This document shows positions 38,469 to 45,419 of a DNA stretch of 64,000 bases, in pieces. Every line of letters starts with the position of its first letter. The stretch's first letter is position 1. Origin of the DNA: Streptomyces sp. NBC_00306 (lineage in GTDB: Bacteria; Actinomycetota; Actinomycetes; Streptomycetales; Streptomycetaceae); contig NZ_CP108032.1 in assembly GCF_036169555.1 (NCBI RefSeq), forward strand, positions 7,006,001 through 7,070,000, written 5' to 3'. The notes below the pieces were generated by a model, which was not told the DNA's origin, made no database searches, and saw only the letters and a program-made list of their open reading frames with translations. Both the position numbers and the translations under genes were made by a program.

Positions 38469-39323
38469 CTAGCGGCCGGCAGGTCGGGCCGGGATCCGCT
38501 CCAGCACCCCGCCGGCGAACACGTCGTACAACGGCAACGACTCCAGGTGGACATAGCCGATGTGGCAGTCGCAGACGGCCAGCGGACAGGCGCGGGGGCG
38601 CAGCGCCTGCCGGTAGGTGCCGTCGTAGAGGTTCCCGAGCTCGTCCGGGACGAAGTGACAGCGCCGCACCGTGCCGTCCCCGTCCACGGAGACGACCGAT
38701 TCGCCCGTCCGGCAGGGCAGCCCGGCCGACCGGTGCGGATGGCGGCTGTACGCGAACAGCGGGTCGAGTTCGCTCCACTCGGCGGCCTCGGCGTGGGTGT
38801 AGGTGCGGCCCTCCGCCGCGTTCACCCAGAGGTAGACATGGGCCGGCAGTTCGGCGCGGAGCCGGCGGGCGTGCTCCAGGTGCTCGGGGAAGCCGACGAT
38901 GCCGACGCTGAAGCGGACGCCGCGCGCGGCGAGATCCCGGCACTTGCCGAGGAAGCGGTCGTACGGCGTCTGGCCCGGGTGGTAGGTGCACCAGAGCGCC
39001 AGGGTGTCCGGGTCCGCGTCCGCGAGCCAGCCGGTGCGGCAGCTCAGGTTGGTCTGGATCGCCACCCGCCGGACCTGCGGCAGCCGGGACAGATCGACGA
39101 GCGCCCTGCGGTACCAGGAACGGACCAGCCCCTCGCCCCAAGGCGTGAACAGCACCGCCAGACGGTCGTCGGTCTGCGCGGACACCCATCCGGCGAAGCG
39201 CTCCAGAGCTGCCCGGTCAGCACGCAGCTGCTCGGTGCTGTCCCGCCGCTTGGCGAACGGGCAGTAGGGGCAGTCGTAGTCGCACGAAGCGAGCGGGCCC
39301 CGGTACAGGAGGGTCAGATCCAT
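38469..39323 (-). CDS. STM4011 family radical SAM protein
   Basis: A 284-aa radical SAM enzyme of the STM4011 family. The cluster motif CDYDCPYC (Cys14, Cys18, Cys21) is very close to the N-terminus. LFTPWGEGLVRSWY is in the usual GGE position. The C-terminal region has a SPASM-like cysteine set (CRTGESV, RRCHF, RACPLAVCDCHIGY), suggesting an auxiliary Fe-S cluster as in peptide-modifying maturases. The ATG at 39323 matches family length. It is the last gene of the five-gene STM4011-4015 operon, 7 bp after STM4012. Substrate unknown. Confidence 0.88.
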   Translation of the reverse strand: MDLTLLYRGPLASCDYDCPYCPFAKRRDSTEQLRADRAALERFAGWVSAQTDDRLAVLFTPWGEGLVRSWYRRALVDLSRLPQVRRVAIQTNLSCRTGWLADADPDTLALWCTYHPGQTPYDRFLGKCRDLAARGVRFSVGIVGFPEHLEHARRLRAELPAHVYLWVNAAEGRTYTHAEAAEWSELDPLFAYSRHPHRSAGLPCRTGESVVSVDGDGTVRRCHFVPDELGNLYDGTYRQALRPRACPLAVCDCHIGYVHLESLPLYDVFAGGVLERIPARPAGR

Positions 39324-39330
39324 CTGCGGC

Positions 39331-40668
39331 TCACTTCGGTTCGTACGCGGCCATGGCGGCGCGCACGGCGGGTGAGAAGAGCTCCGGACCGAGCGCGTCA
39401 GAGTGCGCCAGGCCCTCCGCACTGAGCCTCAGCCGGTCCGGTGCGGCGGTGTCGTCGAGCCAGCCGAGCGACGCGAACCGCTCCAGCTCCGCCCCGAAGT
39501 CGAGGGCAGGGTGGTGTCCGAACCGCTGCCGGTACTCCTTCACCTCCATGCCCTCCGCCTGGAGAAGCGACTGGAGCAGATGGCGTCGCCGGGCCTCGGA
39601 CTCGTCGATGCGGCGGCCGACCTCGGCACGGCCGAAGTCCTCGGTGGCCGTGTAGTCGTCGATGATGCTGCGGACCTGGTGCATGTCCACGGCGTAGTCG
39701 AAGGAGTAGTGCAGGGCGGAGGTGTAGGAGCGGGCGCCGCAGCCGAGGCCGATCATGCCGTCGGTCTGGCAGGCGTAGTCGTCCGCGCCCTGTGCGGGAG
39801 CCCCCGTGCGGCGGAACATCCGCATCGACACCTGCTCGTATCCCTCGGCGAGGAGATGGTCACGGCCCTCGCGGTACAGCTCCAGCCGCTGGGCGTCCCA
39901 TGCCTCGTTGCTGCCCGTCGCTCGACGGCCCAGACCCGTGAGGGGCCTGACGTACAACGGGTAGAGATACAGCTCCTCCGGCTCCCAGGCGAGCGCGGCG
40001 TCCAGCGAACGGCGCCAGCTCCCCGGGGTCTGGCCCTCGATGCCGTAGATCAGGTCGATGTTGAGGACGGGGATGCGGGCGTCGCGTATCCGGGACAGCG
40101 CGGACTCCACGTCGGCGCGGCGCTGCGGTCGGACGGCGGCCCGGGCCTCCTGGTCGTCGAAGCTCTGTACGCCGATGCTGAGCCGGGTGGCACCACGGTC
40201 GGCGAGGACGGCGAGCCGGTCCGCGGTCGCGGTGGCCGGAGAGGTCTCCACGGACAGCGGGACGGCGCGCAGATCCACGCCGGTCCTCTTCTCGGCGATG
40301 TCGCACAGCCGGTCCAGCTCGCCGGCGGTCAGGAAGGTGGGGGTGCCACCACCGAAGGCCGCGGCGGCGAAGCGCACCGGATCCCGGCCCCCGAGCGCGT
40401 CCCGGACAGCGGTCGCCTGGCGGTCCAGCGCGTCGAGATAGCGGGTGCTCAGCTCGTCGGGAGCGCCGATGCGGGTGAAGAGATTGCAGAAGCCGCAGCG
40501 GACCTCACAGAACGGTATGTGCAGATAGAGGGAGAGCGCGTCCTTGCGCTCCGCCGACCACAGCTCGCGCAGCGACGGCCGGTCGGGGAGCGGACGGTAC
40601 GCCGTCTTGTGCGGATACGCGTAGACATAACTCTGGTACGGGCGGGGGCGGTTCACCGGTGCGCTCAT
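39331..40668 (-). CDS. STM4012 family radical SAM protein (HemN-like)
   Basis: A 445-aa radical SAM protein resembling coproporphyrinogen III dehydrogenase HemN/HemW. The motif YLHIPFCEVRCGFCNLF contains Cys54, Cys58 and Cys61. AAFGGGTPTFLTAGELDRL, SIGVQSFDDQEARAAVRP and the C-terminal HemN wing (RHLLQSLLQAEGM) follow. Genomic context argues against a haem role, since no haem genes are nearby. It overlaps the STM4013-type gene by 4 nt (ATGA), so it is translationally coupled. Function in the family is uncharacterised. Confidence 0.9.
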   Translation of the reverse strand: MSAPVNRPRPYQSYVYAYPHKTAYRPLPDRPSLRELWSAERKDALSLYLHIPFCEVRCGFCNLFTRIGAPDELSTRYLDALDRQATAVRDALGGRDPVRFAAAAFGGGTPTFLTAGELDRLCDIAEKRTGVDLRAVPLSVETSPATATADRLAVLADRGATRLSIGVQSFDDQEARAAVRPQRRADVESALSRIRDARIPVLNIDLIYGIEGQTPGSWRRSLDAALAWEPEELYLYPLYVRPLTGLGRRATGSNEAWDAQRLELYREGRDHLLAEGYEQVSMRMFRRTGAPAQGADDYACQTDGMIGLGCGARSYTSALHYSFDYAVDMHQVRSIIDDYTATEDFGRAEVGRRIDESEARRRHLLQSLLQAEGMEVKEYRQRFGHHPALDFGAELERFASLGWLDDTAAPDRLRLSAEGLAHSDALGPELFSPAVRAAMAAYEPK

Positions 40669-41624
40669 GCCGTGGCCCCTTCGAGGAAGAAGTGGACGTA
40701 CGGCACGGTCCAGACGGCCTCATGACCGAGACGGTGCCCGGTGTAGCCGTCGTCCCCGTAGGCCGTGCCGTGGTCGGAGCAGACGATGGCGAAGCAGCGC
40801 CGGCGGCTGCGCGCGGCGGCGAACAGCCGGCCGATATGACGGTCGACGTACTCCAGGGCTGCCGCGTGGGTCTCCCGCGTGTCGCCCGACTCCCGGGTGG
40901 CGCCCGGGAGATGGAACCAGTTGGGCTGGTGCAGCGAGGGAACGTTGACGAACAGGAACAGGCGCTGCTCGTGCGGGAGCCCGGCGACGATCTGCTCGGC
41001 ACGCTCCACCTGCGCCTCGAAGGAGGTGGGCGACGCGACCCCGAACTCCGGCTCCCAGTGGCTCTCCTGGAACATCCCCGGGAGGACGGAGCCCAGCGGG
41101 CCCTGCTGGTTGAAGAAGCCCACGCCACCGACGCAGACCGTGCGGTACCCGGCCTGCGCCAGACCGGAGACGAGGTCGGGGGTGTCGAAGACGTAGGTCC
41201 TGGGGGCGGTCGTCTCACTGCCCGCGAAGCGTGCGGCGAACAGCCGCGGATGCGGTCCCGGTGCGGCCGGTGTCGGCAGGAAACCCGCGAAGATCGCCTG
41301 GTGGGAGGCGTAGGTGAAGCTGCCCGGCGCGTGTCGCTCCTGCCAGCGTCCGCCGGGCAGATGACGGGCCAGATGGGGAATGCGGCCGGCGGCCGCGAGC
41401 TCGGCGGCGACGTCGAAACGCAGTGTGTCGAGGGTGACGAGCAGCAGATCGTCGCGCCCGACGACCTCGTTCATGTCCGGGTCCGGGTCGGGGTCTGACG
41501 CCGGTGCCGGTGCCGGTGCCGGTGCCGGTACGGATGCCGGGGCTGCGGCCGGGTGTGAGGGTGGTGCCGGATTCGGGTGCGGGGCCCCGGACGTCGGGTG
41601 GGCGGAGGTCTCAGGCGGTGGCAC
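40665..41624 (-). CDS. STM4013/SEN3800 family hydrolase (alkaline phosphatase superfamily)
   Basis: About 319 aa. The catalytic domain, from MNEVVGRDDLLLVTLDTLRFD, is a sulfatase/phosphodiesterase-like alkaline phosphatase fold with SFTYASHQAIFAGFLP near the nucleophile position and the metal-ligand segment VCSDHGTAYGDDGY. I prefer GTG at 41624 because AAGGA lies about 8 nt upstream and it overlaps the STM4014 stop by 14 nt. The internal ATG at 41474 (269 aa) has no ribosome binding site. The extra ~50 residues are Pro/Ala-rich and end in AP and DP dipeptide repeats. Substrate unknown; it is the third gene of the five-gene operon. Confidence 0.82.
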   Translation of the reverse strand: MPPPETSAHPTSGAPHPNPAPPSHPAAAPASVPAPAPAPAPASDPDPDPDMNEVVGRDDLLLVTLDTLRFDVAAELAAAGRIPHLARHLPGGRWQERHAPGSFTYASHQAIFAGFLPTPAAPGPHPRLFAARFAGSETTAPRTYVFDTPDLVSGLAQAGYRTVCVGGVGFFNQQGPLGSVLPGMFQESHWEPEFGVASPTSFEAQVERAEQIVAGLPHEQRLFLFVNVPSLHQPNWFHLPGATRESGDTRETHAAALEYVDRHIGRLFAAARSRRRCFAIVCSDHGTAYGDDGYTGHRLGHEAVWTVPYVHFFLEGATA

Positions 41625-42756
41625 GGTGCACGTTCCTTCTTCTGCCGGGATCGGCGGCTCTGCGTACGGCGGCGATCTGCGCCGCGTAGGTGTCCTGGCC
41701 CTCGGCCCCGCTGCCCGGCAGACCGGTGAGGCCCGGCAGCAGGTCGCCGAAGGCATTGACCTCGCCGACGGCGAAGCGCCGCCATCCGGTGGCGGGCAGC
41801 ACATCGACGCCCACCCGCAGCGAGCCGGGGAAACAGGCCGCGGCCCGCTCGCACAGCTCCAGCATGCCGGTCCAACTGCCGCCCGCTGCCTCGGTCGCGG
41901 CGCGGGCAGCCGCCAGATCCCCGCGTGCTCCGCCGAGATGGAGGTTCGTCATCGGAGAGCGGCTCGTTCTGACGACCGCGTGGGTGGCGCGGCCGGCGAC
42001 GACGACCACCCGCAGGTCGGCCGACCTTCCGCGTTGCGAGGCCTTGGGCACCCAGCGCTCGATGTGCAGACCGTCCGGTGCGAGGGCGTCGACGAGGGCC
42101 GCCACCTCACGCTCGGTCGAATAGCGGCGTACGCGCAGGGAGTTGAAGAGCCGGCCCTGATCGTCCCGCTCCACGGAGGTCGTCGCCTGCACTCGGCCGC
42201 CGCCTGCCGTCTCCACGGCGAGCACGCCCGACGCCGAGGAGCCGTGGGCGAGTTTGACGAACATCCGGCGCAGCCCGGTGTCCTGCTGCAGGGCACGGAC
42301 GTCCTCCCAGCCCCGTACCCTCGGTGCGGCTTCGCCGGACGTGGGCGAGTCGGGCACCGGGACCCCGGCTTCCCGCAACACACCGTGACAGCGCCGCTTG
42401 TCGAACAGCACCGCCAATTCGACCGGGTCGTCCAGCAACGTCGCTCCGGCACCCGTCGCGAGCTCCGCCACGGTCCTGGCGGCGCGCACGAACCGCTCGT
42501 ACCAGCGGGCCGTACCCTCGACCCTCGCCGCGTCGTCCATGCCCCGCAGCTCCCGGTCCACCAGCGGATCCTCGCCGGGCGACTCGATGCGGACCCACTC
42601 GCCGGGGCGGAACCGTGCCCGGCCGCGCAGCACGTCGATCCACGGCACGGCGCGCACGTCGATACCGTCGGCACGCGCCGCGTCCCGGTACAGCGTGACG
42701 CGGCGGTTGCCGGGGATGCCGACCACCGCGAGCCGCGGCGAGGGCCGCACTGTCAC
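41611..42756 (-). CDS. STM4014 family protein (ATP-grasp-like)
   Basis: A 381-aa protein of the STM4014 family. Its layout resembles an ATP-grasp ligase: an N-terminal pre-ATP-grasp fold (LAVVGIPGNRRVTLYRDAA), a lid and lysine region (RRMFVKLAHGSSASGVLAVE), then a metal-binding C-terminal segment with DLRVVVVAG and FAVGEVNAFGDLLPG. It may form amide or ester bonds on a peptide or metabolite. The GTG start overlaps the STM4015 stop (GTGA), and its own end overlaps the STM4013 start. The ligase assignment is inference from motifs. Confidence 0.85.
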   Translation of the reverse strand: MTVRPSPRLAVVGIPGNRRVTLYRDAARADGIDVRAVPWIDVLRGRARFRPGEWVRIESPGEDPLVDRELRGMDDAARVEGTARWYERFVRAARTVAELATGAGATLLDDPVELAVLFDKRRCHGVLREAGVPVPDSPTSGEAAPRVRGWEDVRALQQDTGLRRMFVKLAHGSSASGVLAVETAGGGRVQATTSVERDDQGRLFNSLRVRRYSTEREVAALVDALAPDGLHIERWVPKASQRGRSADLRVVVVAGRATHAVVRTSRSPMTNLHLGGARGDLAAARAATEAAGGSWTGMLELCERAAACFPGSLRVGVDVLPATGWRRFAVGEVNAFGDLLPGLTGLPGSGAEGQDTYAAQIAAVRRAADPGRRRNVHRATA

Positions 42757-43694
42757 TCCGCCACGGCCGTGTAGCGGTCCTCCCGGCCTTCCGCGCTCTC
42801 GTCCTCGGACAGGTCGACCTCCACGCCGTCCGCCCCGAACGCGCCGGACAGCCGGTCGGCCATCGGCTTGCTGATGAAGTGGTGGTGCAGATCGAGCTTC
42901 TTCAGATGTGAGAGCGGCTGCCCGTTCAGCAGGGCTTCGGCACCTTCGTCGCCCAGCGTGCCCATCGAGAGATCGAGGGTCTCCAGCCGCGCGACGACCG
43001 GGGCGCCGGCCACCGCCACGGCGATCTCGTCCTGTATCTCGCTGTTGCGCAGGGCCAGATACGTCAGGGAAGGAAGCCGGGTGCCCGCGAGGATCGGTTC
43101 CAGATCGGACACATCGGCGTTCGCGCCGTACCAGGAGGTGCCGAGCCAGAGGTCGAGGTGCTCCAGCGCGGGCAGATCACTCGCCGCGACACCGCGCACC
43201 ACGGCCGCGTCCAGTCCGCCCGCCTCGATGGTGAGCGAGCGGAGCTTCTCGTGCCGCACGGCGGGAAAGGCCAGGCCCTGACCGCCGCGCACCCCGAACT
43301 CCAGGAGCTCGGGATAGGCGTCGAGGAGTGGCGTCACCAGCCCCTGGTTGATCCAGGAGATCTCGCACTCCTCGTACGTGATGTCGCCGACGAACAGCGC
43401 CCGCAGCCGCGGAAGTCGCTCGCGGGCCTCGACCAGCGCCGAGATGATGGGCTCCGGACCGGAGTCGAACGCCTCGCTCCACGGCCCGACGATCAGCGCC
43501 CGCACCTGCGTGGTGTCCACCGCGCCGAGGAAGCGGGCGAAGGCTTCCTCCCACTCCTCCTCGCTGTCGTACGAGTCGACCGCTATCCGCCACGCCACAG
43601 AAGGCACGCTCGGCAGTTCGGCCTTCGACCCGGCGTCGGGGAAGTCGAACACGGGCAGCCCGTGCAGCTCCTGCAGATGCTCCGAAATGGTCAT
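42753..43694 (-). CDS. STM4015 family leucine-rich repeat protein
   Basis: A 313-aa LRR protein of the STM4015 family and first gene of the STM4011-4015 operon. It begins TISEHLQELHGLPVFDFPD. Several ribonuclease-inhibitor-like LRRs follow (LPRLRALFVGD, LPALEHLDLWLG, LPSLTYLALRNSEIQDE, VARLETLDLSMGTLGDEGAEAL, LSHLKKLDLHHHFIS). The fold suggests a protein-binding scaffold, perhaps docking the enzymes or substrate. The ATG at 43694 has GGAG five nucleotides upstream. A TTGTCAGTG-N8-TAGAAC motif lies 57 bp upstream of the start codon. Confidence 0.88.
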   Translation of the reverse strand: MTISEHLQELHGLPVFDFPDAGSKAELPSVPSVAWRIAVDSYDSEEEWEEAFARFLGAVDTTQVRALIVGPWSEAFDSGPEPIISALVEARERLPRLRALFVGDITYEECEISWINQGLVTPLLDAYPELLEFGVRGGQGLAFPAVRHEKLRSLTIEAGGLDAAVVRGVAASDLPALEHLDLWLGTSWYGANADVSDLEPILAGTRLPSLTYLALRNSEIQDEIAVAVAGAPVVARLETLDLSMGTLGDEGAEALLNGQPLSHLKKLDLHHHFISKPMADRLSGAFGADGVEVDLSEDESAEGREDRYTAVAE

Positions 43695-43750
43695 GCGGGC
43701 TCCAGACACCGGACGGTGCGGTCGGGACGGCGTACATCGCTGACGAGCAG

Positions 43751-43774
43751 AGTTCTACCAAGCCGCACTGACAA
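43751..43774 (-). promoter_or_regulatory. PafBC/RecA-NDp-like promoter of the STM4015-4011 operon
   Basis: On the minus strand, TTGTCAGTG is separated by exactly eight bases from TAGAAC. This fits the actinobacterial RecA-independent DNA-damage promoter consensus TTGTCRGTG-N8-TAnnnT, except that the last base is C, with T next. A transcription start about 7 nt on would leave a ~50-nt leader before the STM4015 ATG, a normal distance. Confidence 0.65.
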
Positions 43775-43869
43775 CGCTCTCCGCGGGGCCGGGCGACCGC
43801 GGCCGCGTCGCCGGACGAGGCCGGTCCGCCCGGGGCCCGATCGCCGTGCCGCCGCTGGTCCGGGCGGCG

Positions 43870-43892
43870 TTGTCAGACCCTGCCTCTAGCGT
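43870..43892 (+). promoter_or_regulatory. PafBC/RecA-NDp-like promoter of the DUF6745 operon
   Basis: TTGTCAGAC, eight bases, then TAGCGT on the plus strand. It matches TTGTCRGTG-N8-TAnnnT at all positions except two (AC instead of TG at positions 8-9). It lies 46 bp before the ATG of the 108-aa protein and is oriented divergently from the matching element at 43751-43774. Confidence 0.55.
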
Positions 43893-43938
43893 CGGTATCA
43901 GCTTCGGCGCACTCGGCGTCGGAAGTGAGGGGAGAGCC

Positions 43939-44265
43939 ATGTACCGGCAGGGAGATGTGCTGATCGTGCCCGTCGCGGAGGAGGCTGTGCCGTCGCACAT
44001 CGCGGGCACTCCCGGTGAGGCGCGGGACGGGCGGGGGCGGCTGGTCCTCGCGCTCGGCGAGGTGACGGGCCATGCCCACGCGGTCACCGGGCCCGGCCGG
44101 CTGGTGCGCGAACCGGGGCCGTTCGGCCCGATGGTCCTCCAACTGCCGGAGGGCGGCCGGGTGGTGCACGAGGAGCACGCGGCGATCACGCTGCCGAAGG
44201 GCTGGTACCGCGTCGTGCGCCAGCGCGAGTACCTGCCGGGCGCGGTGCGCATCGTCGCGGACTGA
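43939..44265 (+). CDS. Conserved hypothetical protein (108 aa) upstream of the DUF6745 gene
   Basis: A 108-aa soluble protein with a compact, beta-rich pattern: MYRQGDVLIVPV, then LVLALGEVTGHAHAV, VLQLPEGGRVVHEEHAAITLP and WYRVVRQREYLPG. The His-containing stretches (GHAHAV, HEEHA) could bind metal, as in a cupin or double-psi barrel, but I do not recognise a named family. The ATG has GGGGAG six bases upstream. It precedes the DUF6745 gene by about 105 bp and probably shares its promoter. Confidence 0.8.
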   Translation: MYRQGDVLIVPVAEEAVPSHIAGTPGEARDGRGRLVLALGEVTGHAHAVTGPGRLVREPGPFGPMVLQLPEGGRVVHEEHAAITLPKGWYRVVRQREYLPGAVRIVAD

Positions 44266-44295
44266 ACGACGAGCGGGACGGCAGGCACAGAGACA

Positions 44296-44329
44296 CACAA
44301 CGCACAGAGCAACACAACGCACAGAGCAA
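44296..44329. repeat. 17-bp tandem repeat in the spacer before the DUF6745 gene
   Basis: Two exact copies of CACAACGCACAGAGCAA (44296-44312 and 44313-44329) are followed by a related CAGCAACAGCGACA stretch. The tract is A/C-rich and unlike the surrounding G-rich DNA. It lies in the untranslated spacer between the 108-aa protein and DUF6745 genes. Confidence 0.8.
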
Positions 44330-44369
44330 CAGCAACAGCGACACGGCCGGACAGGGGACGGGGAAGAAC

Positions 44370-45419
44370 ATGCAGGACGTGGACATGTGGCGGGCCGTGG
44401 CGACGGCCACCGGCCCGGCGGACCGGGCGGCGGCCGAGGAGGGCCTGCGCCTCGCCTACCGCACCGCGGGGCTCGCGGAGCCGGAGCGGATCATCTGGGC
44501 CGCCTCGCCCCGTTCGGGCGTGAGCGAGGTGCGTGCCCTCCAGGGCGCCGGACGCTCCGTCCGCGACGAGGTACGCACCAGGCCCTGGGCCGAGGAACGC
44601 CGCCGTGTCCACGACGAGTTGGGCCCGGCGGGCTGGACGGAGCTGTGGAGCGTGACCGGCGCCCGGCTCTGGGACGGCACCCGCGCACTCGCCGAGCGGA
44701 TCCGGACAGGTGTGGTGGACGACCTCCTCGCCGGAGAGCAGACCGAGACGCCTGCGGACCCGGCGACGCGGGGCGCCGCGACGCGGGCAGCCGAGACCGC
44801 GATACGCCTGATCCTGCTGGACGCCGTGCTCGGACAGCACGACGCGGCCTGGCTCGCCGCCTTCGACGGCCGCAGCGAACGGCTCAACGGGCTGGCCCGT
44901 GTCGCTCGCCAGGCCTGCTGGTGGTGGCCGTTCGAGAAGGCGGTCGTGATCTGCGAACGGCCCGTGGAACTGCACCGTGACGAGGCGGGCCGGCTCGACC
45001 ACGGAGAAGGACCCGCGCTCGCCTTCTCCGACGGATTCGCTCTCCACGCATGGCGGGGCATGCCCGTGCCCGCCGCGTTCCTGCGGGAACTCTCCTCGCT
45101 CACACCCCAGCGCATACGCACCGAGGAGAACGCGGAACTGCGCCGGGTGATGCTCGAGTACTACGGCTACGACCGCTACCTCGCCGAGTCGGGTGCCCAG
45201 CCGGTCCACACCGACGAGTCCGGCACTCTGTGGCGGATCGCGCTGACCGACGACGAGGACGTGGTGATGGTCGAGGTGCTCAACTCCACCCCGGAGCCGG
45301 ACGGCACACACCGCACCTACTGGCTGCGAGTGCCGCCCACGACCAGGACCGCGAGGGAAGGCGTGGCCTGGACCTTCGGCCTCGCGGAGGAGGCGTACGA
45401 ACCACTGCTGCAGACCTGA
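44370..45419 (+). CDS. DUF6745 domain-containing protein
   Basis: A 349-aa protein of the DUF6745 type. It has a helical N-terminal half. The characteristic segment is WWWPFEKAVVICERPVELHRDEAGRLDHGEGPALAFSDGFALHAWRG, and the C-terminal part contains LWRIALTDDEDVVMVEVLNSTPEPDG and VPPTTRTAREGVAWTFGL. No catalytic motif is obvious. GGGGAAG precedes the ATG. With the upstream 108-aa protein it forms an operon divergent from the STM4011-4015 genes and may belong to the same pathway. Confidence 0.85.
   Translation: MQDVDMWRAVATATGPADRAAAEEGLRLAYRTAGLAEPERIIWAASPRSGVSEVRALQGAGRSVRDEVRTRPWAEERRRVHDELGPAGWTELWSVTGARLWDGTRALAERIRTGVVDDLLAGEQTETPADPATRGAATRAAETAIRLILLDAVLGQHDAAWLAAFDGRSERLNGLARVARQACWWWPFEKAVVICERPVELHRDEAGRLDHGEGPALAFSDGFALHAWRGMPVPAAFLRELSSLTPQRIRTEENAELRRVMLEYYGYDRYLAESGAQPVHTDESGTLWRIALTDDEDVVMVEVLNSTPEPDGTHRTYWLRVPPTTRTAREGVAWTFGLAEEAYEPLLQT

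What the first reader, a model, noticed from the sequence alone, without database searches (positions are those of the whole stretch)
38469..45419. Divergent STM4011-4015 and DUF6745 locus as an undescribed modification system
Five overlapping or nearly abutting minus-strand genes encode two radical SAM enzymes, an alkaline-phosphatase-fold hydrolase, an ATP-grasp-like protein and an LRR protein. A plus-strand pair (108-aa protein, DUF6745) starts 244 bp from the LRR gene. Families STM4011 to STM4015 are named only from Salmonella loci and have no assigned function that I know of. Two radical SAM enzymes plus an ATP-grasp fold usually signal peptide or protein modification. The LRR protein could be scaffold or target, and the hydrolase could trim or release the product. 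The 4-14 nt overlaps imply fixed stoichiometry. I found no convincing precursor peptide within the locus.
Basis: partly seen in the sequence, partly recalled or inferred. Interest (0 to 1): 0.85.

Follow-up and report, generated by a model that had tools for sequence, protein, structure and literature searches.

The report
LRR-protein tail modification gene cassette
A conserved five-gene set found across five bacterial phyla appears to chemically modify the last few amino acids, always ending in glutamate, of its own leucine-rich-repeat proteins; the tail that is probably modified had gone unnoticed, and the pathway has no assigned function.

Summary
The locus is real and is a conserved unit. 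STM4011-STM4015 occur together in five phyla; in 395 class-wide genomes STM4015 and STM4011 pass cut-off in the same 56. The 108-aa/DUF6745 pair is a frequent but optional addition.

I propose that it is the C-terminus of STM4015, the LRR protein. All 220 distinct STM4015 sequences collected end in Glu, within a conserved tail ([RY][YF]x[AS]V[SAGT]E) behind a variable acidic linker. Actinobacteria carry one to five divergent STM4015 genes per single enzyme set.

STM4014, the 'ATP-grasp-like' protein, is closest in sequence profile and predicted fold to RimK and LysX/ArgX, which attach amino acids to a protein's C-terminus. STM4011 carries the complete cysteine signature of the Twitch-type sactisynthase SkfB.

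Best explanation: STM4014 loads or extends the C-terminal Glu of the LRR proteins, and the radical SAM enzymes then modify that tail. The link from enzymes to tail is inferred; the substrate amino acid, product and biological role are unknown. It works like LysX/LysW or RimK/S6 but is a member of neither.

The parts
38469..39323 (-). STM4011-family radical SAM enzyme with a Twitch-type auxiliary cluster domain
   Evidence: NF038073, 418.6 bits. Invariant CX3CX2C (C17, C21, C24), C207-X12-G220-X4-C225 and C249-X4-C254-X-C256 in numbering of window:38472-39332. Best solved relative SkfB 6efn, E 1.5e-4. Start ATG at 39323 chosen by conservation.
39331..40668 (-). STM4012-family radical SAM enzyme (HemN/HemW/HutW-like fold family, not HemW)
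   Evidence: NF006067, 648.5 bits; below cut-offs of HemN, HemW and HutW models. Separate HemW elsewhere in the genome.
40665..41474 (-). STM4013 hydrolase, alkaline-phosphatase superfamily, closest to nucleotide pyrophosphatase/phosphodiesterase; candidate Thr nucleophile (T54)
   Evidence: NF038075, 424.1 bits. NPP 7n1s/2gsn E about 1e-7. Invariant D16, T54, D234, H235, H247, H251.
41611..42756 (-). STM4014, RimK/LysX-type ATP-grasp ligase; proposed to act on the C-terminal Glu of STM4015
   Evidence: NF038074, 443.7 bits. Profile hits LysX 1uc8 E 7.4e-6 and RimK 5zct. AF2 pLDDT 89.4. Fold matches ArgX-LysW complex 3vpb Z 25.1 and RimK Z 24.4.
42753..43694 (-). STM4015, LRR protein; proposed substrate/carrier
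   Evidence: NF038076, 399.3 bits. AF2 pLDDT 93.2 with lower-confidence C-terminus. Fold match 2ra8.
42777..42815 (-). variable acidic linker of STM4015 (approximate bounds)
   Evidence: Positions -8 to about -20 have 2.4-3.6 bits entropy and are rich in D/E.
42756..42776 (-). conserved C-terminal tail RYTAVAE of STM4015, invariant terminal Glu; proposed modification/attachment site
   Evidence: 220 of 220 distinct sequences end in Glu; synonymous codon variation shows conservation is at protein level; Glu-ending tail also in Salmonella, Paenibacillus, Deinococcus, Methylobacterium, Bacteroides.
43939..44265 (+). 108-aa protein with invariant GHxH and H(E/D)EH motifs (possible metal site); optional accessory
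   Evidence: phrog_27831 E 2.4e-13.
44370..45419 (+). DUF6745 protein; optional accessory
   Evidence: PF20530 E 8.8e-117; LRR-like N-terminus in the Deinococcus and Methylobacterium versions.

Best explanation
The cassette is a protein C-terminus modification system whose substrates are its own LRR proteins (STM4015). Inferred steps: (1) STM4014, a RimK/LysX-type ATP-grasp ligase, activates the C-terminal Glu of the STM4015 tail and forms an amide with an amino acid or amine (identity unknown). (2) The Twitch-type radical SAM enzyme STM4011 and the HemW-like radical SAM enzyme STM4012 modify the loaded group or the adjacent conserved tail residues. (3) STM4013, a phosphodiesterase/phosphatase-like metalloenzyme, acts on a phosphorylated intermediate or reverses/releases the modification. 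The LRR domain plays the part a leader peptide plays in a RiPP and may also select partners, which would explain arrays of divergent LRR copies sharing one tail and one enzyme set. Shown: gene linkage, tail conservation, copy-number pattern, ligase fold (predicted model), auxiliary-cluster signature. Inferred: that the enzymes act on the tail, the order, and the product.
For: Co-occurrence: the same 56 of 395 genomes hold STM4015 and STM4011 over cut-off; among 121 Streptomyces, 52 hold STM4015, STM4014 and STM4011. Five-gene order kept in Deinococcota, alpha- and gammaproteobacteria and Bacillota; reduced version in Bacteroidota. Tail: 220/220 end in Glu, low entropy at -7 to -1 except -2 and -5, which are limited to a few small residues. 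Arrays: 112 STM4015 copies in 56 genomes, one to five per genome, against one STM4011. Ligase: profile and fold place STM4014 next to LysX/ArgX and RimK; LysX joins an amino acid to the gamma-carboxyl of the C-terminal Glu of LysW, which ends EDWGE (PMC10433800), and RimK adds Glu to the C-terminus of S6 (PMC7343187, PMC8939145). STM4011 matches the SkfB CX9-15GX4C and CX4CXC pattern. Only orphan STM4015 copies lose the Glu: 3 of 4 in genomes lacking the enzymes, 3 of 24 where they are present (Fisher p 0.022, not corrected for kinship). No other gene in the window's genome was found to end in this tail. No separate precursor ORF.
Against: No direct evidence that any enzyme touches the tail. 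One orphan (L046, genome G311) keeps the tail with neither STM4014 nor STM4011 detected. Four of the six tail losses form one clade, three of whose members share a different ending, and two of these four lie in genomes that have the enzymes, so the loss test has about three independent events. STM4014 is only about 12-24% identical to RimK/LysX/ArgX, and the shared fold also covers D-Ala-D-Ala ligases, glutathione synthetase and PPIP5K. Several divergent LRR proteins fit a recognition role better than a plain carrier.
Confidence: 0.6

Rival explanations
1. The tail is a docking or recognition motif, not a modification site: the free C-terminal carboxylate of the LRR protein is read by a partner (one of the enzymes, the 108-aa/DUF6745 pair, or a protease), and the enzymes act on a separate small molecule or protein.
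For: Conserved C-terminal motifs behind flexible acidic linkers are typical of binding tails (general knowledge). AF2 leaves the last residues at lower confidence. Arrays of divergent LRR proteins with a common tail fit adaptors.
Against: The ligase of the cassette belongs structurally to enzymes that act on protein C-termini. A Glu-ending tail is kept in Salmonella, Paenibacillus and Bacteroides loci that lack the 108-aa/DUF6745 pair.
Confidence: 0.22
2. Classical RiPP pathway: the enzymes modify a separate small precursor peptide, with STM4015 as an accessory scaffold.
For: Radical SAM plus ATP-grasp combinations occur in RiPP and graspetide loci (PMC8939145). Graspetide ligase PsnB is among the fold matches.
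Against: No conserved small ORF between STM4015 and the 108-aa gene or within 900 nt beyond STM4011. No leader, transporter or peptidase genes recur in the annotated loci inspected.
Confidence: 0.08
3. STM4012 is a haem enzyme (HemW, HemN or HutW type) and the operon serves porphyrin or haem metabolism.
For: STM4012 matches HutW, HemN and HemW models at E 1e-37 to 1e-41.
Against: All these matches are far below the curated cut-offs while the STM4012 model scores 648.5. The genome has a HemW over cut-off elsewhere (232.7 bits; STM4012 130.2). No other haem gene recurs in the annotated loci inspected.
Confidence: 0.04

Closest known systems
LysX/ArgX with LysW (amino-group carrier protein; lysine and arginine biosynthesis)
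   Same: RimK-like ATP-grasp ligase paired with a protein that has an acidic tail ending in an invariant Glu; best fold match of STM4014 is ArgX in complex with LysW.
   Different: LysW is a Zn-binding protein of about 54 residues ending EDWGE; STM4015 is an LRR protein of about 280-360 residues, in arrays of up to five, with two radical SAM enzymes instead of kinase, reductase and aminotransferase.
RimK with ribosomal protein S6 (RpsF)
   Same: Same ligase fold; acts on the C-terminus of a folded protein (PMC7343187).
   Different: Substrate, gene context and radical SAM partners differ; rimK_fam model score 19.9 bits against cut-off 143.4.
SkfB and other SPASM/Twitch peptide-modifying radical SAM enzymes
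   Same: STM4011 has the same CX9-15GX4C and CX4CXC cysteine pattern.
   Different: SkfB has an N-terminal RRE peptide-binding domain and a small Cys-containing precursor; STM4011 begins directly with the radical SAM domain and the proposed substrate tail has no Cys.
NCBIfam families STM4011-STM4015 (NF038073, NF006067, NF038075, NF038074, NF038076)
   Same: The window genes are members of all five.
   Different: The models carry no function; only two papers in the library mention any of the genes, in passing.

Membership tests
STM4011-STM4015 NCBIfam families | Score above each curated cut-off | tested here: met
   All five pass.
ATP-grasp RimK/LysX-type ligase (STM4014) | RimK/LysX fold with ATP-grasp conserved residues | tested here: met
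   AF2 pLDDT 89.4; the nine highest Z (25.1-22.9) are all ArgX, LysX or RimK; DK, FVK..GSSASG, DLRV, TNLHL and EVNAFGD positions conserved.
RimK proper | Score above rimK_fam cut-off | tested here: not met
   19.9 bits against 143.4.
LysX proper | Score above LysX_arch cut-off | tested here: not met
   15.8 bits against 275.6.
LysW amino-group carrier protein | C-terminal Glu on an acidic tail | tested here: met
   220/220.
LysW amino-group carrier protein | Small Zn-binding Cys-rich body with EDWGE ending | tested here: not met
   STM4015 is an LRR protein; consensus tail RYVAVSE-like.
LysW amino-group carrier protein | Covalent amino-acid loading on the Glu | not testable with these tools
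   Needs mass spectrometry.
SPASM/Twitch radical SAM (STM4011) | CX3CX2C plus CX9-15GX4C and further C-terminal Cys | tested here: met
   Invariant in nine sequences from actinobacteria, alpha- and gammaproteobacteria, Deinococcus and Paenibacillus; motif definition PMC6231123.
HemW/HemN/HutW (STM4012) | Score above the equivalog cut-offs | tested here: not met
   HemW 129.8/205.4, HemN 131.1/325, HutW 141.8/400; separate HemW in the genome.
RiPP pathway | Separate small precursor peptide gene | tested here: not met
   None conserved in the intergenic regions tested.
Graspetide pathway | ATP-grasp ligase with a multi-acidic core peptide precursor | tested here: inconclusive
   Fold matches include PsnB but no core peptide repeat was found; the tail has one invariant acid.
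Anti-phage defence system | Match to a PADLOC model | tested here: inconclusive
   Only weak matches, STM4012 to PDC-M51A at 1.4e-6 and STM4015 at 0.002.

The most novel reading that the evidence does not exclude
Arrays of divergent LRR proteins act as targeting modules that all receive the same radical-SAM-tailored group on their C-terminal Glu, so that one enzyme set arms many recognition proteins: a kind of bacterial effector or sensor maturation with no described counterpart.
Probability: 0.25. Interest if true: 0.92.

Novelty: new variant of a known kind. Interest (0 to 1): 0.78.

Why it matters
The cassette occurs in Salmonella, Bacteroides, Deinococcus, Paenibacillus, Methylobacterium and many actinobacteria with no assigned function. 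The tail turns an open question into a simple test: look for a mass shift on the last residues of one protein. If true, it adds radical SAM chemistry on a folded repeat protein's C-terminus to the known kinds of protein modification, and shows a folded domain doing the work of a RiPP leader peptide. It also gives annotators a functional hypothesis for five families now named only after Salmonella locus tags.

Tried and rejected
Separate precursor peptide: six-frame ORFs in the STM4015-to-108-aa gap and beyond STM4011 gave only extensions or shadow frames of known genes. Other tail-bearing proteins in the window's genome: one further DNA match (5523339) is a 41-aa shadow ORF antisense to a longer ORF. 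HemW identity of STM4012: rejected. Known defence system: no strong PADLOC match. Cassette in E. coli: no megablast match with Salmonella-plasmid DNA, which would miss divergent copies. Function of the 108-aa protein and DUF6745 from solved structures: no usable match. Literature on the genes: two passing mentions and none for DUF6745; no held paper joins radical SAM, ATP-grasp and leucine-rich repeat. A complex model of STM4014 with the tail could not be run with the monomer tool. 'Tail kept only where the enzymes exist' was considered as a strong test but is weakened by kinship among the orphans and by L046.
Full report
What is there. All five minus-strand proteins pass the curated cut-offs of the NCBIfam STM4011-STM4015 families, and the second plus-strand gene is DUF6745. 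Using starts conserved in relatives, the junctions are two 4-nt overlaps, one 7-nt gap and one 136-nt gap, so the claim of uniform overlaps is only half right.

It is a unit. In 80 actinobacterial loci fetched by the LRR protein, nearly all hold the same gene order with the divergent pair beside it. In a class-wide sample of 395 genomes, STM4015 and STM4011 exceed their cut-offs in exactly the same 56 genomes. Among 121 Streptomyces, 56 have STM4015, 53 STM4014 and 55 STM4011, with 52 holding all three; some of the remainder are broken or fragmented. Plasmid-borne copies show the five genes in the same order in Deinococcus, Methylobacterium, Paenibacillus and Salmonella. A Bacteroides plasmid has STM4015, STM4014, a fragment of STM4013 and STM4011. 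The 108-aa/DUF6745 pair is present in Deinococcus and Methylobacterium, absent from the Salmonella, Paenibacillus and Bacteroides loci and from part of the actinobacterial loci, and occurs as a pair in Microcystis phage Ma-LMM01, gp175-gp174. It is an accessory, not a core part.

The overlooked element. Every STM4015 protein of an intact locus ends in a short tail behind a variable acidic linker: RYTAVAE in the window, RYVAVSE, RFVAVGE, YYPEVTE, YYTAVSE and the like elsewhere. Of 220 distinct sequences, all 220 end in Glu; position -6 is Tyr in 184 and Phe in 33; positions -8 to -20 vary at 2.4-3.6 bits. Codons at the conserved positions vary synonymously (GAG/GAA, TAC/TAT), so the constraint is on the protein. 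The terminal Glu is kept in Deinococcus (RFVALGE), Methylobacterium (RSIAVSE), Paenibacillus (RYPSLTE), Salmonella (MNAMYTE) and Bacteroides (YYPMITE). A DNA pattern for the tail finds only this gene and one shadow ORF in the 8.5-Mb genome. The AF2 model of STM4015 is a confident LRR solenoid (pLDDT 93.2) whose last residue blocks fall to 72 and 56; its closest solved structure is 2ra8 from Bacteroides fragilis.

Copy numbers. In the 56 genomes there are 112 STM4015 copies over cut-off, one to five per genome, against one STM4011. In arrays such as those of G359, G556 and G643 the copies are divergent, each 39-57% identical to the window protein, yet share the tail and a single STM4014-4011 set. 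Several substrates per enzyme set is the pattern expected if STM4015 is what the enzymes act on.

The ligase. A profile of 21 STM4014 proteins finds LysX of Thermus thermophilus first among solved structures (E 7.4e-6), then 3vpd and E. coli RimK. The AF2 model (pLDDT 89.4) matches RimK, LysX and ArgX first with Foldseek and with VIA-align 2: ArgX bound to LysW Z 25.1 (rmsd 2.6, 271 residues), RimK 24.4, LysX 24.3, before glutathione synthetase 22.6 and others. LysX joins the amino group of its substrate to the gamma-carboxyl of the C-terminal Glu of LysW, whose tail is EDWGE, and an E54A mutant of the haloarchaeal ArgW is an arginine auxotroph (PMC10433800). RimK extends the C-terminus of S6 with Glu (PMC7343187; PMC8939145). 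Finding a ligase of this group next to a protein with an invariant C-terminal Glu is the core of the argument.

The radical SAM enzymes. STM4011 has the radical SAM CX3CX2C, then C207-X12-G220-X4-C225 and C249-X4-C254-X-C256, all invariant in nine diverse sequences. This is the CX9-15GX4C and CX4CXC arrangement described for the Twitch-type sactisynthase SkfB (PMC6231123), its only solved-structure match (E 1.5e-4). Unlike SkfB it has no N-terminal RRE domain, so recognition of the substrate must come from elsewhere; I suggest the LRR domain. STM4012 is HemW-like but below all haem-family cut-offs, and the genome has its own HemW. STM4013 is closest to nucleotide pyrophosphatase/phosphodiesterases, with candidate nucleophile and metal residues invariant. 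A HAD phosphatase adjoins STM4011 in Salmonella and is fused to it in Bacteroides, which hints at phosphate chemistry.

A natural test, and its limits. Orphan STM4015 genes away from the locus keep the terminal Glu in 21 of 24 cases where the genome has the enzymes and in 1 of 4 where it lacks them (Fisher p 0.022). The counting was done by hand from these outputs. The six losses fall into about three events on the tree, which is a quick tree (the careful search did not finish); one of them is a clade with its own shared ending in genomes both with and without the enzymes, so this is suggestive only. No copy linked to an intact locus was seen to lack the Glu.

Mechanism and confidence. The most likely reading is that STM4014 loads or extends the C-terminal Glu and the radical SAM enzymes modify the tail or the loaded group, with STM4013 acting on a phosphorylated intermediate or in reversal. 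I put 0.6 on the tail being the site of action of these enzymes and less on any particular order or product. The main rival is that the tail is a docking motif.

Novelty. The gene families are catalogued, but I found no function, no mention of the tail and no description of this combination in the held library; most subscription papers are not in it. It works like LysX/LysW or RimK/S6 and resembles a RiPP pathway, but fails the membership tests for each. I therefore call it a new variant of a known kind.

Noticed in passing
L135, L136, L137, L138, L139: In five Streptomyces genomes an orphan, tail-bearing STM4015 gene is followed on the same strand by a gene of one shared family; the member scanned has six wHTH-HSP90_Na-associated repeats (PF24410).
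   Followed up: partly
L189:2968-4499: Microcystis phage Ma-LMM01 gp175-gp174 are homologues of the 108-aa protein and DUF6745, as an adjacent pair without the radical SAM cassette.
   Followed up: partly
L188:5918-9935: Bacteroides finegoldii plasmid: STM4015 has an N-terminal WGR domain and STM4011 is fused to a HAD hydrolase; STM4013 appears as a fragment.
   Followed up: partly
L127, L130, L131: One orphan STM4015 lineage has swapped the Glu tail for a different shared ending, I[SC]VGP[LV][ST]Y.
   Followed up: partly
L095:7950-10267: Rhizobium plasmids carry an STM4012-like gene beside a methyltransferase gene and, in R. tropici, pseudoazurin and ccoNOQP, without the other four families; probably a separate subfamily under the same name.
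   Followed up: no
L142: Streptomyces genome G262 holds a decaying copy of the locus with stops and split frames and no STM4013 match.
   Followed up: no
L090:11076-12392 and L188:13832-14984: HipA-family genes lie a few kb from the cassette in Methylobacterium and Bacteroides; possibly chance.
   Followed up: no
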